A stretch of DNA of 34,779 nucleotides from Acidobacteriota bacterium (GCA_019639215.1 JAHBSH010000020.1:1-34779), one strand, 5' to 3'; positions 1,314 to 33,038 are shown, numbered from the stretch's first letter. The notes: a model not told the origin generated them from the sequence alone. Numbers and translations are program-made.

Positions 1314-1353
1314 TGATATAGTCCTTCATATATTTTGAAGTTAGAATTATCAA

Positions 1354-3170: not shown

Positions 3171-3218
3171 GTACATAGACCACGTAGATCTTTCTATGTT
3201 CTTATGTGTCAATGTGGT
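3162..3218. repeat. Imperfect palindromic intergenic repeat, dapE-like/dapB junction
   Basis: Outer arms ACCACAT (3162-3168) and ATGTGGT (3212-3218) and inner arms ACATAGA (3173-3179) and TCTATGT (3193-3199) form a nested inverted repeat. The left arm supplies the last two Thr codons and the TAG stop of the upstream gene. The wording is like ACCACATAG/ACATAGA intergenic repeat families seen in many environmental bacterial genomes. There is no following T-run, so it is not an obvious intrinsic terminator. Confidence 0.6.
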
Positions 3219-3229
3219 GATCGGAAAAT

Positions 3230-3949
3230 ATGAAGATCGCACTTATTGGATACGGAAAGATGGGCCGGTTGATCAGTAAACTGGCCGGTGAATCGGGTCA
3301 TGACATTGTTGTTACCATAAGTGAGTCTCACGCGGGACTTTCTGCGGGAGAACTTGCGGAAACTCTTCGCGCGGCTGATGTGGCGATAGATTTTACTGCT
3401 GCTGATGCCGTTCGCCGAAATGTTGAGGCTTGTTTGATCGCCGATATTCCGGTGGTTGTCGGTACGACGGGATGGAATGATCAAAAAGGCGATATAGAAA
3501 AGCTTGTAACCGAAAGAAATGGTGCAATGGTTTACGGGGCAAATTTTTCGATCGGCGTAAATCTTTTTTTTCGGATCGTAGAACTTGCTTCTGAACTAAT
3601 GGCGGATTTTCAGGATTATGAGCCTTTCATCGAAGAACAACACCATTCAAGAAAGCTGGACAGCCCAAGCGGAACCGCACTGAAACTAAAAGATATAGTC
3701 AGCAAGCATTTAAGGAAAGAGCTAAACATTGCCGCAACCCGTGCCGGAAACATTCCCGGAACGCATCGCGTAGGCTTTGACGGTCAAGGAGATCAGATAT
3801 TGTTGGAGCACACGGCTCGCAGCCGCGACGGGTTTGCACTTGGGGCCATTACTGCGGCCGAGTGGATAAAAGACAAAAAGGGGGTTTACGAATTCTCTGA
3901 CATATTGAAACGCACCAATGTCACTTTGCCAATCGATCAGAAGAACTAA
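3230..3949 (+). CDS. dapB: 4-hydroxy-tetrahydrodipicolinate reductase
   Basis: Reduces the product of DapA with NAD(P)H, in the cytoplasm, on the DAP/lysine pathway. The N-terminal Rossmann motif is IGYGKMG (residues about 6-12), followed by the conserved VVVGTTGW segment. The family signature is EEQHHSRKLDSPSGTAL, with catalytic His/Lys. At 239 residues it is near the short end of the family (about 240-270). The start ATG is the first codon after the palindromic repeat. The gene is 11 bases from the convergent minus-strand lipoprotein gene, with no clear terminator between them. Confidence 0.95.
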   Translation: MKIALIGYGKMGRLISKLAGESGHDIVVTISESHAGLSAGELAETLRAADVAIDFTAADAVRRNVEACLIADIPVVVGTTGWNDQKGDIEKLVTERNGAMVYGANFSIGVNLFFRIVELASELMADFQDYEPFIEEQHHSRKLDSPSGTALKLKDIVSKHLRKELNIAATRAGNIPGTHRVGFDGQGDQILLEHTARSRDGFALGAITAAEWIKDKKGVYEFSDILKRTNVTLPIDQKN

Positions 3950-3960
3950 GATGCTTTTTG

Positions 3961-4560
3961 TTACGACTGCCAGACTATGAATTTTTCCTTTATCGCCCAT
4001 TTACCATCCTTTTTATCTAATACGTATGCTGCCCCAAAACCGCAAAGTGGACATGCTACGTGTTCCAGCTTCAAGAATGCTTTATCGTAACGCGAGTTAA
4101 ATCCGACCCGTGAGAGTATTATGATCGACCCCGGAAGTTTGTTAGGACTACCTCCGAGTACGGGCTTCTTTAGTTCATCCGCAACTTGATCTCCATCCAA
4201 GAATTCGTATGGTTTTGTCAGTTCTAGTTTGGTTTCAAGACTAAATGTAAAAGGTTCTTGGTGCTTCGAAAGAAAGGATCTCAGCACTTCCTCATCAACG
4301 GGACCATATATCTCTTTTAGACTTTCTATTTGTTTATCAAAATCACCACTGTACAATCCGAATACATTATTTTCTACAGTTGACGCTTTATTAGAGATAT
4401 AGAGCGTTCCTGTTGAGCTGGCGGAAAACGCTTCTTCAATTGTTACAGAGTAAACGTCCGCCGATTCTTTAACTTCATCGAATTCACCATACTGCTTGCA
4501 ACCCGAGAATAATAGGAAAAGCAAGCAGAACATTGCTAACTTTGATGGAAGAATCGTCAT
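3961..4560 (-). CDS. Putative lipoprotein of unknown function with a CPLC motif
   Basis: A 199-residue protein I cannot assign. It has a short basic N-terminus, a hydrophobic segment and SGC at about residue 21, consistent with a lipoprotein signal although Phe at -3 is unusual. The rest is mixed alpha/beta with no known catalytic motif. The C-terminal part contains HVACPLCGFGAAYVLDKKDGKW, with a close Cys pair, and ends EKFIVWQS. This pattern resembles secreted hypothetical proteins that finish with a beta-sheet Gly/Lys/Trp motif. The gene lies on the minus strand inside an otherwise plus-strand lysine cluster, downstream of the M23 peptidase gene and co-directional with it. The 126-base gap between those two holds nothing I can identify. 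Confidence 0.7.
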   Translation of the reverse strand: MTILPSKLAMFCLLFLLFSGCKQYGEFDEVKESADVYSVTIEEAFSASSTGTLYISNKASTVENNVFGLYSGDFDKQIESLKEIYGPVDEEVLRSFLSKHQEPFTFSLETKLELTKPYEFLDGDQVADELKKPVLGGSPNKLPGSIIILSRVGFNSRYDKAFLKLEHVACPLCGFGAAYVLDKKDGKWAIKEKFIVWQS

Positions 4561-4686
4561 CCCAACAAGTATATACTATCTGGCGTGGACGGTAGTACGA
4601 GTGAAACTGTGAGTAACTTGATAGCTTGTGTATTGGTTGTATAGCAGTTACAGGATGATTTGTCGGGAAAATTGTATTCGATGAGT

Positions 4687-5304
4687 TTACCGAGTTGATG
4701 GACGAACTTGCTGATCGATGAAATCCGATGGATCGACCCAGCCATATCGGATCGGGCTGTAGCCGGTGAATACCATATTCCATGACGGGCAGTGTTCTTC
4801 GCGTATCTCAAAATGCAGGTGGCAAAGGTAACGGCCGTTTGCATTCCCGATGGTGCCGATAAGGTCTCTTTTTTTGACCTCACCAATCTTCATTTTGATC
4901 TCTTGAAGGTGTCCGTATAGCGATTGCACTTTTTTACCGTCGGGTAGAGTGTGCGTCACGATAATGACGTTTCCCCAACCTGTACCGGCATCAGCGGCAT
5001 ACGTGATCACACCGTTTGCTATCGCATAAACAGGTTCGCCGCAATCGGTATTACCGCCTGTGTTCTTGTTCCAATCCTCACCGAGATGGTTTTCCTCGCC
5101 AAAATCCAGAGCGTTATACCAATCATCATTTTTATCACGTGCCTGCGTAACATACTCCGTTTTGCCGACCGGATAGGCAAAGCTGTCGGCAGACAATACA
5201 GGCTCTGATGACAACGGCGTTTCTGTGGCAACGCTGTCCGAGCAGCCCAATGTGAATAGGGCGGCAGTGATAGAAATGCTTATAAGTGCTATAAATTTAA
5301 CCAA
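4687..5304 (-). CDS. M23 family zinc metallopeptidase (LytM/peptidoglycan endopeptidase-like) lipoprotein
   Basis: A 205-residue predicted envelope peptidase. The signal segment ends at TLGC, suggesting lipid attachment. The LytM domain covers about residues 60-185: HLGEDWN (first His and Asp zinc ligands), a beta-hairpin with IANGVITYAADAGTGWGNVIIVTH, SLYGHL, and HLHFEIR (the HxH motif). All zinc ligands are present, so it is probably active rather than a degenerate LytM regulator. Likely substrate: peptide cross-links of peptidoglycan, which contain the DAP made by the surrounding genes. The only possible start is TTG at 5304, since the frame upstream closes without an ATG. It is divergent from dapA, sharing a 70-base intergenic region. 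Confidence 0.88.
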   Translation of the reverse strand: MVKFIALISISITAALFTLGCSDSVATETPLSSEPVLSADSFAYPVGKTEYVTQARDKNDDWYNALDFGEENHLGEDWNKNTGGNTDCGEPVYAIANGVITYAADAGTGWGNVIIVTHTLPDGKKVQSLYGHLQEIKMKIGEVKKRDLIGTIGNANGRYLCHLHFEIREEHCPSWNMVFTGYSPIRYGWVDPSDFIDQQVRPSTR

Positions 5305-5311
5305 AGTATTT

Positions 5312-5341
5312 TTGTAACTTCTTCTCGGATAAGCATATACT
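5312..5341 (+). promoter_or_regulatory. Candidate sigma70-type promoter for dapA
   Basis: TTGTAA (5312-5317) and TATACT (5336-5341) are separated by 18 bases and placed about 34 bases upstream of the dapA ATG, in the divergent M23/dapA gap. This is a match to E. coli-like consensus by eye only. Confidence 0.4.
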
Positions 5342-5374
5342 TTACGAAATCAGTAGGACAAGGGTTCGAAGTTT

Positions 5375-6277
5375 ATGACCAGCAAAATTGAATGGATGCA
5401 CGGATGTGCGACCGCATTAGCGACGCCGTTTCACAAGGACGGTTCAATCGATGATGGATGTTTTCGGAGCCTCGTTGAACGGCAGGTCAAGAAGGGCGTA
5501 AGGCTGTTGGTGCCGTGCGGCACAACCGGCGAAAGTGTCACAATGACGCCAGAAGAGCAGGATCACGTTATCCGAATGACCGTAGAAACAGCGCATAAAC
5601 ACGGTGCAAAGGTCATTGCCGGAACAGGCACAAATAACACGTCAGCAGCCATTGACCTGACCCGTAAGGCTCGCGAAGCCGGTGCCGATGCCGCATTGAT
5701 CGTCGCGCCGTATTACAACAAACCTACACAGGCAGGACTTTTTGCTCATTATTCAGAGATCGCAAAGTCTGTAAAAGGTTTTCCGATAATGCTCTATAAT
5801 GTGCCGTCGCGAAGCGTTGCGAATATATCAGCAGAAACAACACTTCGGCTTGCTGAGGCTCACGAGAACATTGTCGCGATAAAAGAAGCCTCGGGAAATT
5901 TCTCGCAGATAATGGAGATACTTAGGAACAGGCCGAAAAACTTCAAAGTATTCGCGGGCGATGACGCAACGGCACTGCCGCTGATAGCGGTCGGTGCGGA
6001 CGGGCTTGTCTCCGTCTGCTCTAATGAAATCCCGAAAGAGATGTCGCAAATGGTGGAAAAAGCCCTAGACGGTGCTTACACGGCCGCTAGAAAGCTTCAT
6101 TACCAACTCTTACCGCTTATGGAAGCAAATTTTATCGAAGCATCACCGGCTCCGTGTAAATTCGTGATGTCCGTATTGGGGTTGCTGGAAGAAAATCTCA
6201 GATTGCCGCTTGTTCCTGTGACAAAAGAAACACAGCTAAAACTAAAGGCTGTGATGAAAGAAACAGGCCTTGTATAG
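5375..6277 (+). CDS. dapA: 4-hydroxy-tetrahydrodipicolinate synthase
   Basis: Condenses pyruvate with aspartate semialdehyde, the committed step to DAP/lysine. It is a 300-residue TIM barrel of normal length. Diagnostic segments are CGTTGESVTM (substrate/phosphate-like loop), LYNVPSRSVANIS with the catalytic Tyr, and VAIKEASG with the Schiff-base Lys at about residue 170. It restarts the plus-strand lysine cluster after the two minus-strand lipoprotein genes and probably has its own promoter just upstream. The next gene starts about 34 bases after its stop, so they are probably co-transcribed. Confidence 0.96.
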   Translation: MTSKIEWMHGCATALATPFHKDGSIDDGCFRSLVERQVKKGVRLLVPCGTTGESVTMTPEEQDHVIRMTVETAHKHGAKVIAGTGTNNTSAAIDLTRKAREAGADAALIVAPYYNKPTQAGLFAHYSEIAKSVKGFPIMLYNVPSRSVANISAETTLRLAEAHENIVAIKEASGNFSQIMEILRNRPKNFKVFAGDDATALPLIAVGADGLVSVCSNEIPKEMSQMVEKALDGAYTAARKLHYQLLPLMEANFIEASPAPCKFVMSVLGLLEENLRLPLVPVTKETQLKLKAVMKETGLV

Positions 6278-6311
6278 ATCGGGATGCCGAAACATTGTAG
6301 GAGATCTTTTA

Positions 6312-6764
6312 ATGAAAAGACTTGTGTTTTTGTTTTTGGCCGTTTTGTTCATTTCGGCAGGTTCCTATGGGCAGGCTCCGACGCCGTCGGATCAAAATAA
6401 TGCGGAAGCTGAAGTGATGAAAGCCATTGCAAAATGGGCTGATGCGGTTCGCAGCCGTGATATGAAAGCTTTGGACGCCCTCTTTGCAGACGAGCTTTTT
6501 ATTACGACATTTGACGGCAAAACGCGGGGAAAAAAGGAAGAGCTTGAGGTGCTGAAGCCCAATCCTAATGTCCGCACGGTCTCAGTCGAGAACGAAGATG
6601 TCAGAGTAAAGTTATATGGCGAGACGGCGGTCGTAACGGCCCTGACAAAGATGCAGTTCGTCATCAGCGAAAAAGAAACTCCGGTTGCGATGCGTTACAC
6701 AGCCGTTTTTGTAAAACGAGACGGGCGATGGCAGATGGTTGCGTTGCAAACGGCAAGGACCTGA
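6312..6764 (+). CDS. Exported SnoaL/DUF4440-like (NTF2 fold) protein
   Basis: A small secreted protein of about 150 residues. I chose ATG 6312 because it follows a TAGGAGAT ribosome-binding site and begins with a clear signal peptide (MKRLVFLFLAVLFISAGSYG, cleavage near GQA). An upstream in-frame ATG at 6270 overlaps dapA and would bury the signal. The mature part has the NTF2-like pattern: helix AIAKWADAVRSRDMKALDALFADELFIT, then a beta-sheet with VRVKLYGETAVVTALTKMQF and a closing RDGRWQMVALQTAR, typical of DUF4440. Such proteins bind small ligands or are ketosteroid-isomerase-like, and no function can be assigned here. It sits between dapA and dapD but has no known role in the pathway. Confidence 0.85.
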   Translation: MKRLVFLFLAVLFISAGSYGQAPTPSDQNNAEAEVMKAIAKWADAVRSRDMKALDALFADELFITTFDGKTRGKKEELEVLKPNPNVRTVSVENEDVRVKLYGETAVVTALTKMQFVISEKETPVAMRYTAVFVKRDGRWQMVALQTART

Positions 6765-6844
6765 AGCTGAAGCGGTATTTTGCCTTACAGACACAGAGAC
6801 GCGGATAGAAATTATAATAAGCTGAAAACTTACGAATATAATCA

Positions 6845-7675
6845 ATGAACTTACGAGAGCAGATCGAAGAGCTATTTTCCAAATCTGAATTTTCCGCCGA
6901 TGACAGGAAAGTATTTGAAGAATTCAAATCGGCATTGCGGACGGGTGAGATCCGTTCGGCGGAAAAGGGTGATGACGGTGTTTGGCAAGCGAATGCGTGG
7001 GTCAAGCAGGGTATTTTGCTTGGTTTTAGAATGGGTAAATTGGTCGAGATCTCTCAGCCGTCAGAAACGCTGAAATTCTTTGATAAGGACACGTTTCCCG
7101 TCAGGCCTATGACGGTTGAGGATAATGTGCGGATCGTGATGGGCGGTTCATCTATCCGTGATGGTTCTTATGTTGCTCCGGGAGTTGTGCTTGCTCCGCC
7201 GTGCTGGATAAACGTCGGGGCGTATGTTGATGAAGGCACGATGGTAGATTCGCATGCTTTGGTCGGCAGCTGTGCACAGATCGGAAAGCGTGTACATTTG
7301 TCGGCTGCGGCTCAGATCGGCGGTGTCCTAGAGCCGATAGGTGCAGTCCCGGTTGTCATTGAAGACGACGTTATGGTCGGCGGCAACACCGGCGTATATG
7401 AAGGCACGGTTGTCCGCGAACGGGCCGTGCTTGCTTCGGGTGTCATCCTAACTCGCTCCACGCCTCTTTTTGACCTGCCTAATTCACGGATCATCAAATC
7501 CGATGGCGATAAACCACTTGAAGTTCCCGCCGGAGCGGTCGTCGTGCAAGGTTCGCGTGCTATCAGCAGCGGTTTCGGCAACGAGAACGGCCTGTCGATC
7601 TATTGCCCGATAATCGTAAAATACCGCGACCAAAAGACAGACACATCGACGAAACTTGAAGATTATCTGCGATAG
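6845..7675 (+). CDS. dapD: 2,3,4,5-tetrahydropyridine-2,6-dicarboxylate N-succinyltransferase
   Basis: Transfers succinyl from succinyl-CoA to tetrahydrodipicolinate, committing this organism to the acylated (succinylase) DAP route. At 276 residues it matches the E. coli-type DapD length (274). An N-terminal helical domain is followed by a left-handed beta-helix of hexapeptide repeats over roughly residues 95-235 (for example GSYVAPGVVLAPPCWINVGAYVDEG in segments), including AAQIGGVLEPIGAVPVVIEDD and GGNTGVYEG. The C-terminus ends with GLSIYCPIIVKYRD, characteristic of this enzyme. The 80-base gap upstream contains a CACAGAGACGCGGA word resembling degenerate intergenic repeats, and no terminator. 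Confidence 0.96.
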   Translation: MNLREQIEELFSKSEFSADDRKVFEEFKSALRTGEIRSAEKGDDGVWQANAWVKQGILLGFRMGKLVEISQPSETLKFFDKDTFPVRPMTVEDNVRIVMGGSSIRDGSYVAPGVVLAPPCWINVGAYVDEGTMVDSHALVGSCAQIGKRVHLSAAAQIGGVLEPIGAVPVVIEDDVMVGGNTGVYEGTVVRERAVLASGVILTRSTPLFDLPNSRIIKSDGDKPLEVPAGAVVVQGSRAISSGFGNENGLSIYCPIIVKYRDQKTDTSTKLEDYLR

Positions 7676-7757
7676 ATCCGACGGATAAGAAGTAAAAGCT
7701 ATCCGACAGGCGTTTGCTCATTGGAACGGTCGATGAAGATTGATAATATGAAACTAT

Positions 7758-7982
7758 ATGCAGGAAGAAAACGAAAATCAGCTCCCTGACGAAGAACAAG
7801 GGCTTGCCGACAGAATAACGGGACTTGGGCAGAAGATAATCGGCGAGGTCGAAATGATCGGCGGTATTTTGACGGGCGACCCGAATACGGCTGCCGAAGG
7901 CGAGTTCAACCTTGAGGTCGGCGACCTCCGCGAGGATGTCGAAGAGGATCTAGAAGGATCTGAAGACAACGAAGGGCAGTAA
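7758..7982 (+). CDS. Small acidic protein, weakly CsbD-like
   Basis: A 74-residue, very acidic protein with many Glu/Asp residues towards the C-terminus and no signal peptide or membrane segment. The middle, GLGQKIIGEVEMIGGILTGD followed by AAEGEFNLEVGDLRED, has the spacing of CsbD-type general-stress proteins (GE...G...D...A.GE...G...). The resemblance is loose and I do not claim membership. The gene is flanked closely by dapD upstream (82 bases) and the aminotransferase downstream (12 bases), so it is probably in the same transcript. The stop TAA is followed directly by the aminotransferase's ribosome-binding site, supporting a real coding unit. Confidence 0.65.
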   Translation: MQEENENQLPDEEQGLADRITGLGQKIIGEVEMIGGILTGDPNTAAEGEFNLEVGDLREDVEEDLEGSEDNEGQ

Positions 7983-7994
7983 TAGGAGATAATT

Positions 7995-9152
7995 GTGAGT
8001 TTGGGAATGGAGAAAGCAGCTAACACAGGACTTGTGCTGCCAAAACGGCTTCAGGGGCTGCAGCCAACGCTGATACGTCAATTTTTTGAACGGGCATTGC
8101 CTGACAGCATAAATTTCGGGCTTGGTGAGCCGGATCTGCCCACGCCTGAGTTTTTGCGGCAAGAGGCGGCACGCGTGACGCTTGAGGAACAGAACGGTTA
8201 CACGTCGCATCCGGGTTTGCCTGCTCTGCGTGACAAGATCGCCGAACAGTATCCGCATCTTGGACTTCCTCGAACGGGTGTTGTTATCACATGCGGCTCT
8301 CAAGAGGCGATGACAGCAGCCTTGCTTTCTATTGTGGATGCAGGTGATGACGTCCTTGTTCCTGATCCAAGCTTTCCGGCTTATGATTCTTGCGTAAGGA
8401 TCGCCCAGGGAAATCCGGTGTTGTATCGGCTGCCTGCTGAAAAGGACTTTGCATTTGATATAGAAGAGTTCAAAAAAGCTATTACCCCAAAGACCAAAGC
8501 TGCGGTTGTGATCTCGCCCTCAAACCCAACGGGAAAGATATTCACAGAAAGCGATCTGAAACAGATCGCGGAAGTTCTGGAAGGTACAGGAATCTATCTC
8601 ATCTCAGACGAGATATACAGCGATCTTTACTTTGGAGAAAGGCCGCGTTCGGCATCAGAATTCTATGACCGCACGGTCGTTGTAAGCGGCTTGTCCAAAT
8701 CGCTGAGCATGACCGGGTGGCGGCTTGGCTGGGCGGCAAGCGGAGAAGCGGACCTGATGCAGGCGATCCATGTTCTGCACGGATTCCTGACCGTTTGTGC
8801 TTCTACCATCACGCAAAAGGCGTCCCTGCTCGCATGGACGGAAGAGGCTGAAGCGTGGAAGGAACGATCCCGCGAGATCTACAAAAAACGCGGGGAGTTT
8901 TTGGTCGATCTTTTTGAAAAAGAGCTCGGGTTGCGGGCGACCGCTCCAGAGGGAGCTTTTTACACGATGCTTGACGTACGCCCGCTAGGTGATGATCTGG
9001 AGATCGCTGAGAAATGCCTGCAAAATCGTGTCGTTACGGTTCCCGGCGTCGCCTTTGGGCAAGAGGCAAAAGGCTTTTTGCGGATATCCTTCTGCAATAC
9101 TGAAGAGCGGCTGGCGGAAGGTGTAAAAAGAATGAAAGAGGCTCTTGTTTGA
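7995..9152 (+). CDS. PLP-dependent class I/II aminotransferase, probable N-succinyl-DAP aminotransferase (DapC role)
   Basis: Likely aminates N-succinyl-2-amino-6-ketopimelate using glutamate, between DapD and DapE. It is a fold-type I aminotransferase of 385 residues: FGLGEPDLPTPEF, CGSQEAMTAAL, SPSNPTGKI, LISDEIYSDLYF with the PLP-contacting Asp/Tyr, and VSGLSKSLSMTGWRLGW with the PLP Lys; the C-terminal FLRISFCNTEERL carries the carboxylate-binding Arg. I chose GTG 7995 because AGGAG (7985-7989) lies five bases upstream; ATG 8007 is a weaker alternative. Aminotransferases of this class act on aspartate and aromatic amino acids too, so the DapC role rests on its position between dapD and asd. 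Confidence 0.9.
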   Translation: MSLGMEKAANTGLVLPKRLQGLQPTLIRQFFERALPDSINFGLGEPDLPTPEFLRQEAARVTLEEQNGYTSHPGLPALRDKIAEQYPHLGLPRTGVVITCGSQEAMTAALLSIVDAGDDVLVPDPSFPAYDSCVRIAQGNPVLYRLPAEKDFAFDIEEFKKAITPKTKAAVVISPSNPTGKIFTESDLKQIAEVLEGTGIYLISDEIYSDLYFGERPRSASEFYDRTVVVSGLSKSLSMTGWRLGWAASGEADLMQAIHVLHGFLTVCASTITQKASLLAWTEEAEAWKERSREIYKKRGEFLVDLFEKELGLRATAPEGAFYTMLDVRPLGDDLEIAEKCLQNRVVTVPGVAFGQEAKGFLRISFCNTEERLAEGVKRMKEALV

Positions 9153-9216
9153 TCAATCTGTGCAGGGTAGAACGATCGGGTCTCACATGACCTATTGTCC
9201 ATAATTAATCTAGCTG

Positions 9217-10254
9217 ATGAAAACATATAGAGTAGGAATTTTAGGCGCGACCGGAACGGTTGGTCAGCGGTTCGTGCAGTTGCTGCAGGGGCATCCGCAA
9301 TTTGAGATAACCGCTCTTGCGGCATCGGAAAGATCAGCAGGCAAGACCTATGCTGAAGCCTGTGCGTGGAAACTATCAGGAGATATTCCTGAGAGTGTAG
9401 GTATCCTTGAAGTTCAGCCCATAGAACCGCCGCTCGACTGTGACATCGTTTTTTCCGGTTTGCCGTCAAATGTTGCACGCGAAGCTGAGGCGGCATTTGC
9501 TCGTGCAGGCTATCCGGTCGTGACGAATTCTTCATGTTATCGCATGGATGAGGACATTCCTTTGTTGATACCGGAGATAAATGCCGATCATCTTGGACTT
9601 ATCCCGATCCAACAGGAAAAAAGAGGGTTCGGCACTGGATTTATCGTCACAAATCCTAATTGTGCGATATGCAGCTTTGCTCCGCCGCTTGCGGCATTGC
9701 ACCGTAAATTTGGCGTTGAGGCCGTTATGGTGACAACGATGCAGGCGATCTCCGGTGCGGGTTACCCGGGAGTTTCCTCAATGGACATAGCAGACAACGT
9801 TTTGCCCTACATAGCAGGAGAAGAACCAAAGGTTGAGACCGAGGCCCAGAAAATACTTGGTTCTTTCAATGGGCACGCTGTCGAAAAGGCAGATTTTACG
9901 GTTTCGGCACAGTGTTTTCGCGTTGACGTGATCGATGGACACACAGCATCTGTTAGGGTCAAGCTTTCAAAGACTTCGACACTCGAGGATGTGATAGAGG
10001 CGATGCGTGAATTTCCTTCACTTGGCCTATACTCATCACCGGAACATTTTATTGAGGTTTTGGAAGAGCCTTCGCGGCCGCAACCTCGGCTTGATCGTGA
10101 CCGCGGCAAAGGTATGACAATAACGGTCGGACGTCTTTTCCCCGACAATATATTCGATTACCGTTTTGTAGGCATGAGCCATAATACGGTTCGCGGAGCC
10201 GCCGGTGCTGCTATATTGAATGCCGAACTGCTGGTTGAGAAAGGCCTGATATGA
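9217..10254 (+). CDS. asd: Aspartate-semialdehyde dehydrogenase, archaeal/fungal-type
   Basis: Reduces aspartyl phosphate to aspartate semialdehyde, the branch point of lysine, threonine and methionine synthesis. The N-terminal NADP motif is GILGATGTVGQRF. The catalytic Cys is in VTNPNCAICS and the catalytic His lies later in the substrate domain. The block ISGAGYPGVSSMDIADNVLPYI and the following GEEPKVETEAQKILG are characteristic of the archaeal/fungal branch of Asd rather than the E. coli branch. The length of 345 residues suits that branch. It lies 64 bases after the aminotransferase, and its stop is 10 bases before the transporter ATG, suggesting one transcript. Confidence 0.95.
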   Translation: MKTYRVGILGATGTVGQRFVQLLQGHPQFEITALAASERSAGKTYAEACAWKLSGDIPESVGILEVQPIEPPLDCDIVFSGLPSNVAREAEAAFARAGYPVVTNSSCYRMDEDIPLLIPEINADHLGLIPIQQEKRGFGTGFIVTNPNCAICSFAPPLAALHRKFGVEAVMVTTMQAISGAGYPGVSSMDIADNVLPYIAGEEPKVETEAQKILGSFNGHAVEKADFTVSAQCFRVDVIDGHTASVRVKLSKTSTLEDVIEAMREFPSLGLYSSPEHFIEVLEEPSRPQPRLDRDRGKGMTITVGRLFPDNIFDYRFVGMSHNTVRGAAGAAILNAELLVEKGLI

Positions 10255-16724: not shown

Positions 16725-17570
16725 CTAATCGGCCGTATCAGGTAATATCTCGATCTGAGCGTTCAATGTGCCGCTGTTATCGTTCAGATTTCCTTCATTG
16801 ATGCCGAGGAAGAGAGCACCATCTCTTTCGGCGACAAACTCACGGCTCGAACCGATATAGATAAAGTCATTATTGTCATCGCCGACAACTGCAATAAGTG
16901 CTCCAGTTGGAACTGCCTTCAGAAGCTTGTCGTTGTCCTCGAGATCGTAAAGGCCCGCGGCCCCGGAGGTTTTACCTTTACCCAGAGATATTTCACCGGT
17001 GCCGGTTATACGGATACGCTGACCTTTGCGGACGACCCATCCGGTATTGGTCCAACCATTTGATGTGTTATCAGCCATCACCTTTATACTTATCGTGATG
17101 GGTTGAGCTGAAGAGGTTCGAACGATGGGTGCAGGATCACTTGCTGCTTCCGATCCGCTAACTACATCTTCGTCAATAACGGTTTCATCATCAAGCACGG
17201 CAACCTCACTGTTTATCGGATCCGGCGTTGCGGTCGGCTTAGGGATATCTGCTCTTGTTGTGTCCGAAACGATGACACGCGGAGAGTTTCTTACGGATCC
17301 TTGTCCTGTGGTGTTGTCCGATGTGACCACACGCGCTGTGGAAGGCGAATTTAAAGCGTCTCCGTCAAATTCTATGGAGTCAACCTCAGAAGCATCATAG
17401 GTTATAGTTCGCTGTCGTGTTCCTTCGCCAACGGTAATGGTGAATTTGCCGCCGCTAAACCCTGTGATGCGGCCTTTTATTATGCTTCCATCCTTCAACC
17501 GGATGGTGTCTGCCATAACAGAAAGGGAAACGCAGAAAACCAGAAGAAGCGATAGAATGGTTCTGGACAT
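16725..17570 (-). CDS. Secreted protein with SH3-like N-domain and LecA/PA-IL-like C-terminal lectin domain
   Basis: A 281-residue exported protein with three parts. Start ATG 17570 follows GAGGAG four bases upstream, and the signal peptide is MSRTILSLLLVFCVSLSVMA. Residues about 21-70 form an all-beta SH3/Sm-like segment (DTIRLKDGSIIKGRITGF...DSIEFD). Residues about 70-157 are a low-complexity acidic linker. Residues about 158-281 match the PA-IL galactophilic lectin pattern: Trp in NGWTNTGWVVRKGQRIRITGTGEISLG, PTGALIAVVGDD (the family's LPxGALIGRIG), FIYIGSSREFVAERDGALFLGINEG and DNSGTLNAQIEIL, with the DNSG loop. LecA binds galactose via Ca2+. Carbohydrate binding here is inference from fold similarity. 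Confidence 0.85.
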   Translation of the reverse strand: MSRTILSLLLVFCVSLSVMADTIRLKDGSIIKGRITGFSGGKFTITVGEGTRQRTITYDASEVDSIEFDGDALNSPSTARVVTSDNTTGQGSVRNSPRVIVSDTTRADIPKPTATPDPINSEVAVLDDETVIDEDVVSGSEAASDPAPIVRTSSAQPITISIKVMADNTSNGWTNTGWVVRKGQRIRITGTGEISLGKGKTSGAAGLYDLEDNDKLLKAVPTGALIAVVGDDNNDFIYIGSSREFVAERDGALFLGINEGNLNDNSGTLNAQIEILPDTAD

Positions 17571-17762
17571 CGGACTCCTCACTTTTGTTTCAAATTTATC
17601 TAGCCGGGAAGATGAGTTTGCTGAAACTCCTACAAAATGATGCAATTTCCTTGACCCTGGTTGTAATATAATAAATAGTTACTAAAACTTATTGGTCATT
17701 ATACACGTGATGCTGAGATCTCTGTCATAAAACTGTCGATCAGAGTGTATAAAGATCGCAAG

Positions 17763-18853: not shown

Positions 18854-21406
18854 ATGTACCAGATCACATCCATCATAATGCAGGGCAATAGTATAAAAGG
18901 GGCTTTCGTTTGTGAACGCTTGCCGCATTTCAAAAGACTCGGTCAAACGATCATTCTGTTCATGATCGCAACATTGGTGTCTTTGAATTGTCTGGCGCAG
19001 CTAAGGCCTGTTGGAGATGTAAACGCAATAGTTGAAAAAGGGACAGCACATATTGTTTTTACTACGAGTGGCGGCCCGGTGGTTTCAGTTTCTTTCATGT
19101 CCGCTGATGTCATACGCGTCCGCATAGCTCCATCAGGTAAATTTGAACCTGACCACAGTTATGCCTTCGCTCCTGATCATAGGTCAACCAGGATAAATGG
19201 CCGAATCAATGAACGTCCGAATGAGATCGAACTTGTTTCTTCGGACGGAGTGAGAGTCGTCATCAAAAGACGTCCTTTCCAAATAGAAATATACGATGCC
19301 GACAACAGAGCAGTTCTCAAAGACGATCCGCGACGGCCTGTTCTGTTCGATGCTGAATCCGGTGAGGTGCAGACGACAAAGCTGCGGCAAAGCGAACTTG
19401 AAACTTATTACGGATTTGGAGAAAAGGCATTCTTGGAGATGTCGCGGAACGGAAAACACATTGTAAATTGGAACACCGACACATTCTCCTATCCAGTCGG
19501 AACCGATCCCATATATCAATCGATACCATTTTTTTACGCTCTTTATGACGGTAAGACATACGGACTTTTTCTGAACAACACATATCGCACGGTCTTTGAC
19601 ATGGGCAAAACCTCAACCAGCCGTTACACGTTTGGTGCGGAGGGCGGCGAACTTGACTACTTTGTTTTCGTCGGCGGTCAGGGGCGTTCGCCGCAAAAAG
19701 TGCTTAAGGATTACACCGCCCTTACGGGACGCACACCGCTTCCGCCGATCTGGGCTTTGGGAAATCAGCAGTCCAGATGGTCGTATTTTCCTGAAAAAAG
19801 GGTGAAAGAGATCGCCGCGGGCTACAGAAATAACAAGATTCCGGCTGATGTCATCTATCTTGATATCGATTATATGGATGACTATCGTGTCTTCACTTGG
19901 GACAAGGAGCGTTTTCCTGATCCAAAGAGAATGATCTCAGAGCTTCGTAAGGACGGCTTTCGAACGGTGCTTATCATTGACCCGGGCATAAAAGTTGACC
20001 CCAATTACCATACCTACGCTGAGGGACGCCGATTGGGAATGTTTGTGAAGAATCCGGACGGTTCGGAACTCCAGCGTGATGTCTGGCCCAAGGCATCGGC
20101 ATTTCCTGATTATACCGATCCGAAAGCTCGAGACTGGTTTGGCGAACAGTATAAAATGCACCTCGAAGAAGGCGTGGCCGGGTTTTGGAATGATATGAAT
20201 GAACCCGGAGTCTTCATGACCGCAGAAACCGAAAAGCCGGAGATCTTCCATCATCCCGCAAAGACCTTTCCGTATGACACACCGCATGTCGGAGACGGGT
20301 TAAAGGGCGACCATCGCCGGTATCATAATGTTTACGGGATGTTGATGACGCGGTCGACATTTGAAGGATTGAAAAAGCTCTCGCCGCATACGCGCCCATT
20401 TGTTTTGACCCGTGCAGGTTTTGCAGGGGTTCAGCGATATTCGGCCGTATGGACAGGTGACAATTATGCAAGCTGGGATCACCTCGCGATGACGATACCA
20501 ATGCTTGCTAACATGAGTGTTTCAGGTGTTCCTTTTGTCGGAGCTGATGTCGGCGGCTTTAACGACATGCCCAGCGGCGAGCTTTATGCACGCTGGCTGC
20601 AGGCGGCAGTATTGACACCGTTCTTACGCTCACATTCGGTCGGATGGGTCGGTAATAAGGAGCCATGGGAATACGGTAATGAGTTTACTGAGATAAACCG
20701 GCGTACGGTCGAACTGCGTTACAAAATGCTGCCGTACCTGTACACGCTTTTCAAGAAACATGAAGAAGACGGCTCGCCTCTTATGCGGCCAATGTGGTAC
20801 GAGTTTCCAAACGAGAAAGCTCTTTATCTGAATAACGACCAGTTTATGGTCGGCAGCGATCTGATGGTTGCCCCGGTCGTGAAGGAGGGAATGAGAACAC
20901 GTGGAATCTATCTGCCTGCCGGAGCAGAGTGGATAGATTGGTGGACCGGGGAAAAATATGAAAGCGGAAAGATACATTATCTGCAGACCCCGCTTGATAT
21001 GCTGCCGCTTTTCATTCGCGTCGGAGCGGTCGTGCCAACACAGGATGTCGTTCAGCATACAGGTGAAATGCCGTCATCAAAGATCACTTTGAATATAGCG
21101 GCAGGTATCAAACCCGATCAAACGCGGGTTTCTAAGCTGTATCAGGATGCCGGTGAAGGATATGGCTACAAGTCAGGTGAATGGAGCGAGGTTGTGGTCA
21201 CACATATTGCCGGAAAACTTCTGATCGAACGCAAAGGTAGATACAGCGGCCAGAGTATCGGATCGATAGCCGTTCATGGAGTTGCTGAGAGGCCGAAAAA
21301 CATTCTTGTTGACGGGAAGGTGACAGAATTTAGCTATACAGCCGACAAGAAGCGAGTTGAATTCTCCGTTCCTTCTAATGTAAGAGAGGTGGCGTTGGTA
21401 AGATAA
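18854..21406 (+). CDS. Secreted GH31 family alpha-glycosidase (alpha-glucosidase/alpha-xylosidase-like)
   Basis: An 850-residue retaining alpha-glycosidase. The catalytic nucleophile Asp is about residue 447, in FWNDMNEPGVF, the GH31 signature. The acid/base Asp is about residue 536, in WTGDNYASWDHL. The N-terminal beta-domain ends near YYGFGEKAFLEMSRNGKH, and the motif IPFFYALYDGKTYGLFLNN and LDIDYMDDYRVFTWD also match GH31. An N-terminal hydrophobic segment (LGQTIILFMIATLVSLNCLAQ) after a 30-residue lead suggests export; a later start is possible, but AGAGGG upstream of 18854 supports this ATG. Substrate could be alpha-glucan, isoprimeverose or xyloglucan fragments; the sequence does not decide. 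No matching LacI operator is visible upstream. Confidence 0.92.
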   Translation: MYQITSIIMQGNSIKGAFVCERLPHFKRLGQTIILFMIATLVSLNCLAQLRPVGDVNAIVEKGTAHIVFTTSGGPVVSVSFMSADVIRVRIAPSGKFEPDHSYAFAPDHRSTRINGRINERPNEIELVSSDGVRVVIKRRPFQIEIYDADNRAVLKDDPRRPVLFDAESGEVQTTKLRQSELETYYGFGEKAFLEMSRNGKHIVNWNTDTFSYPVGTDPIYQSIPFFYALYDGKTYGLFLNNTYRTVFDMGKTSTSRYTFGAEGGELDYFVFVGGQGRSPQKVLKDYTALTGRTPLPPIWALGNQQSRWSYFPEKRVKEIAAGYRNNKIPADVIYLDIDYMDDYRVFTWDKERFPDPKRMISELRKDGFRTVLIIDPGIKVDPNYHTYAEGRRLGMFVKNPDGSELQRDVWPKASAFPDYTDPKARDWFGEQYKMHLEEGVAGFWNDMNEPGVFMTAETEKPEIFHHPAKTFPYDTPHVGDGLKGDHRRYHNVYGMLMTRSTFEGLKKLSPHTRPFVLTRAGFAGVQRYSAVWTGDNYASWDHLAMTIPMLANMSVSGVPFVGADVGGFNDMPSGELYARWLQAAVLTPFLRSHSVGWVGNKEPWEYGNEFTEINRRTVELRYKMLPYLYTLFKKHEEDGSPLMRPMWYEFPNEKALYLNNDQFMVGSDLMVAPVVKEGMRTRGIYLPAGAEWIDWWTGEKYESGKIHYLQTPLDMLPLFIRVGAVVPTQDVVQHTGEMPSSKITLNIAAGIKPDQTRVSKLYQDAGEGYGYKSGEWSEVVVTHIAGKLLIERKGRYSGQSIGSIAVHGVAERPKNILVDGKVTEFSYTADKKRVEFSVPSNVREVALVR

Positions 21407-28512: not shown

Positions 28513-29409
28513 ATGAGATCATCCGAAAACATTTTTCGTTCGATAGCAGTGGCCTTTGTTCTTTCGACGACCGTGTTCCTTGCGACAGCAGAGATCAGTG
28601 CCCAGCCCTTCAGGGTAATGACGTTTAACATTAGATATGATGAACCACGTGACGGTGTTAATGCGTGGCCTAATCGCAAGCAAAAGGTCGCTGACGTTAT
28701 CAAAAAATACGAAGCGGATATCGTTGGAGTTCAGGAGGCTCTTGAACATCAGTTAAAAGATCTTGAAACATTGTTGCCGGAAATGGATTGGTGCGGTGTC
28801 GGCCGTACAGACGGTACAAATACCGGCGAATATTCTGCGATATTTTATAACCGGCAGCGGTTTGAGCTGATCAAGACGGAAACCTTTTGGCTGTCAGAAA
28901 CACCGGACAAGGCAGGCAGCAAAGGCTGGGACGCGGCTCTTCCACGCATCGTAACGTGGGCAAAATTCAAAGATCGAAAAACAGGAAAGGAATTCTTTCA
29001 CTTTAATACGCATTTTGACCATATGGGTGAAAATGCTCGTGTCAACAGTTCCCGGTTGCTTCTCGAAAAGGTTTCGTCGATAGCCAAGAAAAAGAGAGCT
29101 GTTGTCACCGGAGACTTTAATGCCAATTATTCGACGGATGTTTACAAGACGATCATTGAGCCTGCGAAAAACCGTAAACCTATTCTATTTGATGCAAGAC
29201 GCAGTAGCGAGACCGAATATGTAGGAGTGTCTTCAACATTCTCCGCTTTCAAAGAGCTTGTTCCAGAGAATTGGATAGATCATATCTTTGTAAACAAGGA
29301 CGTTCGTGTTCTGCGATTCTTTGCCGCTGATGACAGGCCCGGTGGACTTTGGCCATCGGATCATTTACCTGTAGTGGCAGAGATCACTTTTGAAAAAAAG
29401 AAAAGGTAA
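28513..29409 (+). CDS. Secreted endonuclease/exonuclease/phosphatase (EEP) family protein
   Basis: A 298-residue exported metal-dependent phosphoesterase. The signal segment is VAFVLSTTVFLATAEISA, cleaved near QPF. All EEP blocks are visible: RVMTFNIRYDE (Asn), VGVQEAL (metal Glu), FNTHFDHMG (His), VTGDFNANYS (Asp/Asn), WIDHIFVN and PSDHLPVVAEI (catalytic His). Secreted members of this type are common beside glycoside hydrolases in Bacteroidota and Acidobacteriota; their substrates are usually unknown. It lies between the TonB receptor and the GH3 fusion gene on the same strand, 104 bases before the latter. Confidence 0.9.
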   Translation: MRSSENIFRSIAVAFVLSTTVFLATAEISAQPFRVMTFNIRYDEPRDGVNAWPNRKQKVADVIKKYEADIVGVQEALEHQLKDLETLLPEMDWCGVGRTDGTNTGEYSAIFYNRQRFELIKTETFWLSETPDKAGSKGWDAALPRIVTWAKFKDRKTGKEFFHFNTHFDHMGENARVNSSRLLLEKVSSIAKKKRAVVTGDFNANYSTDVYKTIIEPAKNRKPILFDARRSSETEYVGVSSTFSAFKELVPENWIDHIFVNKDVRVLRFFAADDRPGGLWPSDHLPVVAEITFEKKKR

Positions 29410-29513: not shown

Positions 29514-32500
29514 ATGATCAATAAACGAAATCTTCTTGCCTCATTAACATTGTGCGCCATCCTTATTGCCTCCGTCGTCTCTGTGTCTGCACAGCAGAGT
29601 CAGGCAGGACGGAATGCCGAGATCGAGCGGAGGATCGATGCACTTCTCGCTCAAATGACGCTCGCTGAAAAGTTGGGGCAGCTGCAGCAGCTTGATGGCG
29701 AAGCAAACGGTAAGTATCGTCCCGAACACCTAGAAATGGCTAGGAAAGGTTTACTCGGTTCTACGTTGAATGTCCGTGGTGCAAGGATGACGAACGAACT
29801 CCAAAGAGCAGCCCTCGAATCCAGATTGAAAATACCGATATTGCTTGGGTTCGATGTCATTCACGGATATCGGACGATCTTTCCTGTGCCTCTTGGCGAA
29901 GCCGCAAGCTGGGATCTTGCTCTTATGGAGCAAACAGCCGCCATTGCTGCCGCCGAGGCCCGGGCTGCTGGCGTACATTGGACATTTGCCCCAATGGTGG
30001 ACATTTCTCGCGATGCCCGCTGGGGCCGCATTATCGAAGGATCGGGCGAAGACACATATTTTGGTTCTAGGGTAGCTTATGCAAGGGTTCGCGGTTTTCA
30101 AGGAGATGATTACAGCCAAAAGGATCGTGTGATGGCGACCGCCAAGCATTGGGTCGGTTACGGTGCCGCTGAGGGCGGACGCGATTACAATACGACAGAT
30201 CTTTCTGAAAGAGCATTGCGCGAGGTTTATTTTCCGCCTTTTAGAGCGGCTATTGACGCCGGCGTAGGTTCTTTCATGACAAGTTTTAATGATATTGACG
30301 GATCACCGGCAACCGGAAATCCGTGGGTCATGAAAGATGTGCTTCGCGATGAATGGAAATTTGACGGACTTGTGGTCAGCGATTACACGGCAGTGCTGGA
30401 ATTGCAAATGCATGGTCTTGCGGGAAGCGAAAGCGATGCTGCAATGTACGCTCTGAATGCGGGTACGGATATGGAGATGGTCAGCCGTCTCTATAATAAA
30501 TACGGCGAAGATCTGGTCAGATCAGGCAAGGTCTCAATGCAAACCATAGATCAGGCTGTGCGTCATGTTTTGCGTGTAAAGTTCCGCCTCGGTCTGTTTG
30601 ACGACCCTTTCGCAAGTGAGGAACGGGAAAAAGCAGAGGTTTTCAAACAGGCAAATCGCGATGTTGCAAGGATCGCAGCTGAAAGATCTTTTGTTCTTTT
30701 AAAGAACGAGGGCAATGCTCTGCCTCTAAAAAAAGATGCAAAGAATATAGCTGTCATCGGTGCACTTGCAAACAGCAAAATAGACATGAACGGCAACTGG
30801 GCCGGTGATGGACAGCCCGAAGACCCGATAACCGTTCTTGAAGCCCTCAAGACCAAATACCCGACCGCTTCCGTTTCATTCGAACCGGGGTGCGACCCTG
30901 CATGTGAGAACACCGAAGGTTTTGAAAAGGCCTTAGATGCGGCGAAAAAAGCTGATGTCGCGATCCTTGTTGTCGGCGAAGCCGCATGGATGTCCGGTGA
31001 GGCGTCGTCTCGTTCAAAGATCGGGCTTCCCGGCAAACAGCTTGATCTTGTAAAGGCTATTCATGATTCTGGTAAGCCATATGTGGTCGTTTTGATGACG
31101 GGCCGTCCGCTTGAGCTTAACTGGTTAAAGGAAAATTCTCCAGCCATTCTTATCACCTGGCTTCCTGGAACTGAAGCCGGCAATGCGGTTGTGGATACGT
31201 TGTTCGGCGATGTCAATCCGGGCGGAAAGCTGCCTGCATCTTTCCCAAGATCGGTCGGTCAGCTTCCGCTTTACTACAATCACAAGCGAACCGGACGCCC
31301 GTTGTTGGAAGCGAACAAATATACCTCGAAATATCTTGACGTCGAGAATTCTCCGCTTTTTCCTTTTGGTTACGGTTTAAGTTATACCCGGTTCCAACTG
31401 GAGAACCTAAGGCTTGATAAACTCAAAATAAATCCGAACGAGAGCGTCAAGGTCAGCATTGATGTTCATAATCGCGGCAAGGTAAAAGGTGATGAGACCG
31501 TGCAGCTCTACATTCACGATATTGCGGCTTCGGTCACGCGTCCGGAAAAAGAGCTTCGCGGTTTCGAACGTGTTACGGTTGAACCGGGCCAGATGAAGAC
31601 GGTCGAGTTCACACTCGGGGCAAAAGAGCTAAGCTTTCTTGGACGTGACCTTAAACCCGTGTTGGAACCCGGCGAATTCTTGGTAATGGTCGGAACGAGC
31701 AGCGAGAGTGGACGTCAAAGCGTCTTCGAGGTCGTCGATCCAAACAAACCACCGGTTGGTATCAAAGAGGCGATTGATCCTGCTCCTACGGCTCCGGTCC
31801 CGACGGCTCGCATTTCGGCTGAGGATGATGCCTTTCTTGAAGACCTTTCTAAAAGGACATTCCAATATTTCTGGGAGCGAACGAATCCGAAGACCGGTTT
31901 AACACTTGACCGGGCTCCGGCTGATGGAAGTCCGCGTGGACGGGAGCATCGAAGCTATAACGTTGCGAGCATTGCCGCATCCGGCTTTGCCCTTAGCGGC
32001 TATTGTATTGCCGCCGACCGCGGTTGGGTAACGCGTGATGCAGCGAAAGAACGTACCCGCAACACGCTGGATTTCTTTGCCAACAAGATGTTTCACATGA
32101 ACGGCTGGTTCTATCATTTTGTCGATAGCGAAACCGGTGAACGTAAATGGCAGAGCGAAATATCGTCAATAGACACCGCGCTCCTTTTGGGCGGAGTGCT
32201 CACGGTTAAGCAGTGTTTTTCTGATGATAAACAGATCGTCGAACTAGCAGACAAGATATACCGTCGCGTCGATTTCAAATGGATGCAGGCCGGCAATCAG
32301 TATCTGCTTAGCCACGGTTATCGTCAGGAGCAAGGTGGCTTTATAAAGAGCACTTGGGGACGGTACAGTGAAGAAGCAATATTGTATCTGCTCGCTATCG
32401 GTTCCCCGACTCATCCGATATCACCAAATTCATGGTATGCATTTGAACGTCCGTGGAATGAATACGGCGGTTATCGCTACATTGGGTCTGTTTCGCCGCT

Positions 32501-33038
32501 TTTCATTCACCAGTTCTCACATGCTTGGGTCGATCTTCGTGCCAGACGCGAACGCATCCCGTCCTTTATCAACTATTTTGATAATTCGGTCAAAGCGACG
32601 AGGGCACAGCACAAATTCTTTGCTGAAGAATTAAGTAAGGAATTTCCAACATACGGGCCAGAGATGTGGGGATTGACATCATCTGATAGCGAACACGGAT
32701 ACACTGCATGGGGCGGTCCGCCACGACCTGACCGTATTGACGGTACTGTTGTGCCGTGTGCTGCGGCCGGGTCGCTGATGTTCGCACCGGACATAACGCT
32801 GCCGACCTTAAAACGAATGAAGGCCGAATACGGCGACAAGGTATATCAGAAATATGGATTTGTCGATGCCTTTAATCCACATACAGGATGGGTGAACGGG
32901 GATGTCATCGGCATTGATCTTGGTATAACTTTGCTTTCTGCAGAAAATCTCCGTTCCGGAAAGAACTGGTATTGGTTCATGCAAAACGATGAGATACGCC
33001 GTGGCCTAAAACTCGCTAGACTCGACATTCAACCCTAG
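29514..33038 (+). CDS. GH3 beta-glucosidase fused to a GH144/glucoamylase-like (PF10091) module
   Basis: A 1174-residue secreted two-enzyme fusion. The signal peptide is MINKRNLLASLTLCAILIASV, cleaved near SAQ. Residues about 30-740 are a full GH3 beta-glucosidase: KHWVGYGAAEGGRDYN, nucleophile Asp about residue 290 in GLVVSDYTAVLE, the (alpha/beta)6 sandwich with TWLPGTEAGNAVVDTLFGDVNPGGKLP, and a fibronectin-III-like domain ending near residue 735. A Pro-rich linker (about 742-770) leads to residues 770-1174, an (alpha/alpha)6-type module: LSKRTFQYFWERTNPKTGL, WQSEISSIDTALLLGGVL, GWGGP-like AWGGPPRPDRIDGTVVP, GWVNGDVIGIDLGITLLSAENLR. This matches PF10091, which includes GH144 endo-beta-1,2-glucanases. 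The pair could cleave beta-1,2-glucan to sophorose and then glucose. The polymer is inferred. Confidence 0.9.
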   Translation: MINKRNLLASLTLCAILIASVVSVSAQQSQAGRNAEIERRIDALLAQMTLAEKLGQLQQLDGEANGKYRPEHLEMARKGLLGSTLNVRGARMTNELQRAALESRLKIPILLGFDVIHGYRTIFPVPLGEAASWDLALMEQTAAIAAAEARAAGVHWTFAPMVDISRDARWGRIIEGSGEDTYFGSRVAYARVRGFQGDDYSQKDRVMATAKHWVGYGAAEGGRDYNTTDLSERALREVYFPPFRAAIDAGVGSFMTSFNDIDGSPATGNPWVMKDVLRDEWKFDGLVVSDYTAVLELQMHGLAGSESDAAMYALNAGTDMEMVSRLYNKYGEDLVRSGKVSMQTIDQAVRHVLRVKFRLGLFDDPFASEEREKAEVFKQANRDVARIAAERSFVLLKNEGNALPLKKDAKNIAVIGALANSKIDMNGNWAGDGQPEDPITVLEALKTKYPTASVSFEPGCDPACENTEGFEKALDAAKKADVAILVVGEAAWMSGEASSRSKIGLPGKQLDLVKAIHDSGKPYVVVLMTGRPLELNWLKENSPAILITWLPGTEAGNAVVDTLFGDVNPGGKLPASFPRSVGQLPLYYNHKRTGRPLLEANKYTSKYLDVENSPLFPFGYGLSYTRFQLENLRLDKLKINPNESVKVSIDVHNRGKVKGDETVQLYIHDIAASVTRPEKELRGFERVTVEPGQMKTVEFTLGAKELSFLGRDLKPVLEPGEFLVMVGTSSESGRQSVFEVVDPNKPPVGIKEAIDPAPTAPVPTARISAEDDAFLEDLSKRTFQYFWERTNPKTGLTLDRAPADGSPRGREHRSYNVASIAASGFALSGYCIAADRGWVTRDAAKERTRNTLDFFANKMFHMNGWFYHFVDSETGERKWQSEISSIDTALLLGGVLTVKQCFSDDKQIVELADKIYRRVDFKWMQAGNQYLLSHGYRQEQGGFIKSTWGRYSEEAILYLLAIGSPTHPISPNSWYAFERPWNEYGGYRYIGSVSPLFIHQFSHAWVDLRARRERIPSFINYFDNSVKATRAQHKFFAEELSKEFPTYGPEMWGLTSSDSEHGYTAWGGPPRPDRIDGTVVPCAAAGSLMFAPDITLPTLKRMKAEYGDKVYQKYGFVDAFNPHTGWVNGDVIGIDLGITLLSAENLRSGKNWYWFMQNDEIRRGLKLARLDIQP

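What the first reader, a model, noticed from the sequence alone, without database searches (positions are those of the whole stretch)
29514..33038. Single polypeptide joins a GH3 beta-glucosidase to a GH144/PF10091-type module
The sequence shows two complete catalytic modules with one signal peptide and a Pro-rich linker near residues 742-770. PF10091 includes GH144 endo-beta-1,2-glucanases, which release sophorose, and GH3 enzymes can split sophorose. A fusion would process beta-1,2-glucan to glucose outside the cytoplasm without losing the intermediate. I do not know of this architecture being characterised.
Basis: partly seen in the sequence, partly recalled or inferred. Interest (0 to 1): 0.75.

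Follow-up and report, generated by a model that had tools for sequence, protein, structure and literature searches.

The report
Fused beta-1,2-glucanase and beta-glucosidase enzyme
A soil Acidobacteriota bacterium and its close relatives have joined two neighbouring secreted enzymes into one protein, predicted to cut beta-1,2-glucan (a bacterial sugar polymer) into pieces with one half and trim the pieces to glucose with the other; it is a tidy, apparently undescribed arrangement of two known enzyme types.

Summary
Window 29514-33038 (+) encodes one 1174-aa protein: signal peptide, complete GH3 beta-glucosidase, a Pro-rich linker, then a complete GH144 module. The best solved relative is XcSGL (GH144, 42% identity). 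The predicted fold matches GH144 structures at Z 50-53, against 46 for GH189, 40 for GH194 and 20 for glucoamylase. The general acid (E953), candidate general base (D887) and clan-defining F997 and Y1063 are kept.

The fusion is real: 16 species-level genomes carry it, all in one family. Other Blastocatellia and Elusimicrobia carry the same two genes side by side, each GH144 with its own signal peptide. GH3s linked to GH144 form one clade and keep the Lin1840-type subsite +1 triad, which unlinked paralogs mostly lack. The gene sits by a TonB-type transporter and a LacI regulator. The host encodes no detected beta-1,2-glucan synthase.

Best reading: a scavenging enzyme, probably periplasmic, that cuts beta-1,2-glucan (GH144) and trims the pieces to glucose (GH3). 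One correction: endo GH144 enzymes release Sop3 and longer; sophorose release belongs to another GH144 subtype. Activity and channelling are untested. Novelty: a new domain arrangement of known enzyme types.

The parts
29514..33038 (+). GH3-GH144 fusion gene, 1174 aa
   Evidence: conserved as one frame in 16 genomes
29514..29591 (+). Signal peptide (residues 1-26, cleavage about VSA/QQ); no lipobox Cys
   Evidence: Read by eye from the translation; no signal-peptide predictor available
29658..30578 (+). GH3 N-terminal TIM-barrel domain (residues 49-355); nucleophile D290, subsite +1 Y291
   Evidence: Pfam PF00933; aligned with JMB19063 D261/Y262 and PMC4757417
30693..31385 (+). GH3 C-terminal domain (residues 394-624); acid/base E496, subsite +1 R595 and Y603
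   Evidence: Pfam PF01915
31494..31703 (+). Fn3-like domain (residues 661-730)
   Evidence: Pfam PF14310
31728..31808 (+). Pro-rich linker (about residues 739-765), in the place of the signal peptide that separate GH144 genes carry
   Evidence: lower model confidence there
31809..33035 (+). GH144 (alpha/alpha)6-barrel module (residues 766-1174); general acid E953, candidate base D887, F997, Y1063, I1134
   Evidence: PF10091 at 32352-32987
28513..29409 (+). Endonuclease/exonuclease/phosphatase-family protein, found near the fusion in several relatives
   Evidence: Pfam PF03372
24734..28252 (+). Oar-like TonB-dependent outer-membrane transporter, conserved upstream neighbour
   Evidence: PF13620 + PF25183
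23293..24573 (-). LacI-family regulator, divergent from the transporter
   Evidence: NCBIfam hits; conserved in L041, L042, L065
22628..23296 (-). GDSL-type esterase (possibly same sugar locus)
   Evidence: Pfam PF13472
21437..22624 (-). MFS transporter, weakly like glucose/galactose GluP (possibly same sugar locus)
   Evidence: PF07690; TIGR01272 below cut-off

Best explanation
A secreted (probably periplasmic) two-step beta-1,2-glucan hydrolase. The C-terminal GH144 module cuts beta-1,2-glucan chains or rings internally by an inverting mechanism (acid E953 acting through the substrate, base candidate D887). This makes non-reducing ends and short beta-1,2-gluco-oligosaccharides (Sop3 and longer). 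The N-terminal GH3 module, a retaining BglX-type beta-glucosidase (nucleophile D290, acid/base E496), removes glucose from those ends until only glucose is left. The locus looks like a scavenging system: a TonB-type porin brings glucan in, the fusion degrades it, and glucose enters the cell by another transporter. The gene arose by fusion of two neighbouring genes that remain separate in other Blastocatellia. Shown here: the fusion, both folds (predicted), the catalytic residues, the conserved linkage and the neighbourhood. Inferred: substrate, product flow, compartment and any kinetic benefit of fusion.
For: GH144 membership: PDB search ranks XcSGL first (E 5e-70) and GH144 chains score 180-328 bits against 60 for GH194 and 40 for GH189; Z 50-53 to GH144 structures; acid, base, F and Y kept and nearly invariant in 141 homologs. 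GH3: BglX equivalog model over its cut-off; close to JMB19063, BT_3567 and Lin1840; nucleophile, acid/base and the Lin1840 subsite +1 triad kept in all fused and nearly all adjacent copies but mostly absent from unlinked paralogs. Linkage: fused in 16 genomes, adjacent in many Blastocatellia and Elusimicrobia; the linked GH3s of these form one clade at 99 support. Shared compartment: separate GH144 genes each carry a signal segment, lost in the fusion. Neighbours: LacI regulator and TonB-type porin. Host has no CGS, OpgG or GH94, which fits scavenging.
Against: No activity data. The subsite +1 triad does not separate sophorose from laminaribiose (Lin1840 takes both), and JMB19063 with the same arginine was considered a cellulose-pathway enzyme, so the GH3 half may be broader. 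About half of the 80 best GH144 loci, mostly in Terriglobia and Bryobacterales, have no GH3 in the stretch held (some stretches are short), so GH3 is not obligatory. In G008, nested in the fused clade, the two genes are separate, so fusion is not essential for the function.
Confidence: 0.82

Rival explanations
1. The GH144 half cuts beta-1,2-glucan but the GH3 half is a broad-specificity beta-glucosidase (laminaribiose, sophorose and others), so the fusion is a general oligoglucoside cleaner rather than a dedicated beta-1,2-glucan enzyme. (This overlaps in part with the best explanation, so the confidences are not exclusive.)
For: Lin1840 and BT_3567 cleave laminaribiose and sophorose at comparable rates; GH3 belongs to the broad BglX group.
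Against: The linked GH3s are one clade tied to GH144 across two phyla, distinct from other GH3 paralogs in the same genomes.
Confidence: 0.35
2. The GH144 half is an exo-acting sophorohydrolase like BDI_3064, so the pair works as sophorose release followed by sophorose cleavage.
For: BDI_3064 (5z06) is among the fold matches, Z 50; its group is in GH144.
Against: The module is closer to endolytic XcSGL (42%); proteins of BDI_3064-like size and layout (about 720-750 aa, barrel at the C-terminus) fall with the CpSGL side of the tree. In L172 an exo-like GH144, an ordinary GH144 and a GH3 sit as three separate genes.
Confidence: 0.1
3. The C-terminal half is a glucoamylase (alpha-glucan), as the Pfam name 'Putative glucoamylase' says.
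For: Pfam PF10091 name; a GH31 gene lies nearby at 18854-21406.
Against: GH15 glucoamylases match only at Z 20, 7-10% identity, against Z 50-53 for beta-1,2-glucanases; SGL catalytic residues are all kept.
Confidence: 0.02
4. The fusion is an assembly or binning artefact of metagenomic DNA.
For: Most sequences are MAGs.
Against: Two modules joined in one frame without a stop in 16 genomes at 61-76% identity.
Confidence: 0.01

Closest known systems
XcSGL (XCC2207), GH144 endo-beta-1,2-glucanase, PDB 8XUL (PMC12102758)
   Same: Fold (Z 51.9, rmsd 1.7 A over 390 residues), 42% identity, D rather than E as general-base candidate, general acid and clan residues
   Different: XcSGL is a stand-alone enzyme with a disordered C-terminal tail; here the module is fused behind a GH3
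CpSGL, founding GH144 enzyme, PDB 5GZH/5GZK
   Same: Fold, E211 and E142 positions
   Different: 28% identity; E142 is D887 here; no GH3
GH3 Lin1840, BT_3567 (5XXL-O) and JMB19063 (3U48)
   Same: GH3 domain layout, nucleophile, acid/base, subsite +1 arginine and aromatic residues (Lin1840, JMB19063)
   Different: None is fused to a beta-1,2-glucanase; Tyr291 replaces Trp271 of Lin1840, as in JMB19063
Ignavibacterium album and Bacteroides beta-1,2-glucan gene clusters (PMC8861115)
   Same: GH144 and GH3 genes grouped together
   Different: Separate genes; the Ignavibacterium cluster also has GH94 and GH35 partners (GH94 not found in this genome)
BDI_3064, exo-type GH144 (5Z06)
   Same: GH144 barrel at the C-terminus of a larger protein
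   Different: Its N-terminal extension is not a GH3; releases sophorose

Membership tests
GH144 | SGL-clan residues: general acid Glu, Phe near the water site, Tyr at subsite -3 (XcSGL E239/F286/Y367) | tested here: met
   E953, F997, Y1063
GH144 | Acidic residue at the general-base position (CpSGL E142) | tested here: met
   D887, as in XcSGL
GH144 | Sequence closer to GH144 than to GH162/189/192/193/194 | tested here: met
   Profile scores 180-328 bits to GH144, 60 to GH194, 40 to GH189, 15 to GH192; no GH193 structure was available to compare
GH144 | Tree placement inside GH144 | tested here: inconclusive
   Tree rooted on NdvB leaves the order of the XcSGL, CpSGL and present clades open; identity argument favours inclusion
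GH144 | (alpha/alpha)6 barrel like GH144 structures | tested here: met
   Predicted model, Z 50-53 to seven GH144 structures
GH144 | Hydrolysis of beta-1,2-glucan, inverting | not testable with these tools
   Needs assay
GH3 (BglX-type beta-glucosidase) | GH3 N and C domains with Fn3-like domain | tested here: met
   PF00933, PF01915, PF14310; NF011678 BglX over cut-off
GH3 (BglX-type beta-glucosidase) | Catalytic nucleophile Asp and acid/base Glu | tested here: met
   D290, E496; invariant in linked copies
Sophorose/laminaribiose-type GH3 (Lin1840, BT_3567) | Subsite +1 Arg and two aromatics (Lin1840 R572, Y583, W271) | tested here: met
   R595, Y603, Y291, by alignment with JMB19063
Sophorose/laminaribiose-type GH3 (Lin1840, BT_3567) | Dimer in which +1 residues come from the partner subunit | not testable with these tools
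   No complex prediction available; expected by analogy
Sophorose/laminaribiose-type GH3 (Lin1840, BT_3567) | Preference for sophorose | not testable with these tools
   Needs kinetics

The most novel reading that the evidence does not exclude
A dimeric enzyme with four active sites that opens cyclic beta-1,2-glucans, which have no ends for a beta-glucosidase, and passes the new ends directly to the GH3 sites, giving complete conversion to glucose in one compartment from imported glucan rings shed by other bacteria.
Probability: 0.25. Interest if true: 0.55.

Novelty: new variant of a known kind. Interest (0 to 1): 0.42.

Why it matters
Beta-1,2-glucans are symbiosis and virulence factors and osmoprotectants of many bacteria, but who consumes them in soil is poorly known. 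This gives a concrete, testable consumer locus in uncultured Acidobacteriota. The fusion also serves as 'Rosetta stone' evidence that GH3 and GH144 partners act on the same substrate, so GH144-linked GH3 genes across Blastocatellia and Elusimicrobia can be annotated with some confidence. A single-chain glucan-to-glucose enzyme could be useful for analysing beta-1,2-glucan.

Tried and rejected
Pfam's 'glucoamylase' reading: rejected by fold and residues. NdvB-type/GH189 origin: rejected, because the own genome has one PF10091 gene only, scoring 222 bits against about 55-94 for NdvB-size proteins, and no GH94. Assembly artefact: rejected (16 genomes). G037 first looked fused because the search tool reported one 1278-aa frame; direct reading showed a stop and separate genes five codons apart in the same frame. 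Strict single-clade test of fused proteins was rejected (p 2.7e-8) because G008, with separate genes, sits inside; so either one fusion and one later split, or two fusions. Literature queries for a GH3-GH144 fusion found none. A Pfam scan of the gene inserted in G008 failed on coordinates and was not repeated. No solved GH193 structure turned up, so that family was not compared.

Full report
Observation. The stretch 29514-33038 on the + strand is one open frame of 1174 codons. Pfam finds the GH3 N and C domains and the Fn3-like domain of a complete GH3 beta-glucosidase, then PF10091 at residues 947-1158. The last 409 residues form a full GH144-type barrel, of which PF10091 is only the C-terminal half. 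A single signal peptide without lipobox is visible by eye, and residues 739-765 are a Pro-rich linker. The coordinates and the description are correct.

Is the C-terminal module GH144? A sequence search of solved structures puts XcSGL (XCC2207, 8XUL) first at E 5e-70. A profile of 16 homologs scores GH144 chains at 180-328 bits, GH194 PgSGL3 at 60, the GH189 domain at 40 and GH192 EeSGL1 at 15. XcSGL and CpSGL are GH144 beta-1,2-glucanases by assay (PMC12102758). The module is 42% identical to XcSGL, while XcSGL and CpSGL are 31% identical to each other. A model of the module (pLDDT 93.4) matches seven GH144 structures at Z 50-53, then GH189 at 46, GH194 at 40, GH192 at 37, GH162 at 30 and GH15 glucoamylases at 20. 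The residues that define the clan and the reaction are all there: E953 (XcSGL E239, CpSGL E211), D887 (CpSGL E142 position, D also in XcSGL), F997, Y1063 and I1134. The CpSGL residue numbers recovered from the PDB chain match the paper exactly and the XcSGL ones match at a constant offset of 14, which checks the alignment. A tree rooted on NdvB domains cannot order the XcSGL, CpSGL and present clades, so placement rests on identity, fold and residues.

The GH3 half. It passes NCBI's BglX model and is closest to JMB19063, BT_3567, PaBglX and Lin1840. The nucleophile is D290 and the acid/base E496. In Lin1840 the sophorose-binding subsite +1 is made by Trp271, Arg572 and Tyr583, the last two from the partner subunit; JMB19063 has Tyr262, Arg587 and Phe598 there (PMC4757417). 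The alignment gives Y291, R595 and Y603 here. In 13 fused and 34 adjacent copies these are nearly invariant, while in 14 unlinked GH3 paralogs from related genomes the Y603 position is a tyrosine in one only and R595 an arginine in five. This supports, but does not prove, a sophorose/laminaribiose-type specificity, since Lin1840 cannot tell the two apart.

Distribution and origin. Among 60 relatives, and in searches of 119 family and 297 phylum genomes, the fused frame occurs in 16 species-level genomes including the window's own (12 full length, 4 cut by contig ends), in three genera of one family. Record titles place the named relatives in Pyrinomonadaceae and other Acidobacteriota MAGs. Other Blastocatellia and Elusimicrobia carry GH3 and GH144 as separate neighbouring genes, usually GH3 first, sometimes reversed. 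In G037 only a stop and five codons separate them, in the same frame. Separate GH144 genes have a hydrophobic signal-like segment directly before the domain; the fused ones have the linker instead. GH144-linked GH3s form one clade (99) apart from the unlinked paralogs, L172 excepted, and the joint tree groups the fused proteins at 99 together with G008, where the two genes are about 2 kb apart with another gene between. So there was either one fusion and one later split, or two fusions.

Surroundings. Upstream lie a LacI regulator, an Oar-like TonB-dependent porin and an endonuclease/exonuclease/phosphatase-family protein, and downstream part of another porin. The porin is found beside the fusion in most relatives, and the EEP gene in several. 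An MFS transporter and a GDSL esterase precede the regulator. The genome (92% complete) has no second PF10091 protein, no MdoG/OpgG and no GH94. It therefore probably does not make beta-1,2-glucan, which fits scavenging; a gene in the missing 8% cannot be excluded. Relatives and other Acidobacteriota often encode NdvB-type cyclic glucan synthases of about 2700-3000 aa.

Mechanism. Shown: the fusion, the predicted folds, catalytic residues, linkage, signal peptide pattern and neighbourhood. Inferred: GH144 cuts internally to Sop3 and longer (as other endo SGLs do), then GH3 takes glucose off the new non-reducing ends. Because a cyclic glucan (DP about 20, PMC11842490) has no ends, the endo cut must come first; joining the steps in one chain guarantees both activities in the same compartment and ratio. 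Whether the substrate is imported whole through the porin, and whether fusion speeds transfer between sites, is not known. If the GH3 half dimerises as its relatives do, the enzyme would be a dimer with four active sites.

'Endo-beta-1,2-glucanases, which release sophorose' mixes two types: sophorose release is the property of the exo-type GH144 enzyme from Parabacteroides (BDI_3064).

Novelty. Each half is a known kind, and their gene-level pairing is known in other bacteria (PMC8861115). No account of the single-chain GH3-GH144 form was found in the held library. CAZy modular tables and subscription journals were not searchable, so this is 'not found', not 'unknown'. It is a new variant of a known kind, of moderate interest.

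Noticed in passing
L172:5558-6754 and L119:6001-7197: Two Acidobacteriota GH144 proteins have Gln at the general-acid Glu position (KYCQLAAMYLL) and an altered Phe position; in L172 the gene is followed by a BDI_3064-like GH144 and a GH3. Possibly a natural non-hydrolytic or binding variant.
   Followed up: partly
L168:2261-5467, L169:1480-4212, L170:2069-4540, L174:1556-4177: PF10091 proteins with N-terminal extensions of roughly 270-640 aa that match no Pfam family.
   Followed up: partly
L167:3316-5775: One frame with PF10091 followed by a zinc alcohol dehydrogenase domain; could be a real fusion or an assembly slip.
   Followed up: no
L038:5507-7646: In G008, nested in the fused clade, a gene of about 700 aa that looks like a GH15 glucoamylase by eye lies between separate GH3 and GH144 genes; not confirmed by a family scan.
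   Followed up: partly
window 28513-29409: Endonuclease/exonuclease/phosphatase-family protein; in the genus it is mostly found in genomes that have the fusion and lies within a few kb of it. Its role in a sugar locus is unexplained.
   Followed up: partly
window 69-10254: Lysine/diaminopimelate pathway genes grouped together: aspartokinase, dapB, dapA, tetrahydrodipicolinate succinyltransferase, aminotransferase, aspartate-semialdehyde dehydrogenase.
   Followed up: no
window 16725-17645: Minus-strand protein with a weak PA-IL-like lectin match and a Leptospira LA_0442-type N-terminal domain below cut-off.
   Followed up: no
window 18854-21406: GH31 family enzyme about 8 kb upstream, with no evident link to the GH3-GH144 locus in relatives.
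   Followed up: partly
[quoted passage not shown] two of them (G005, G028) also carry the fusion, so self-made glucan could be a substrate there.
   Followed up: no
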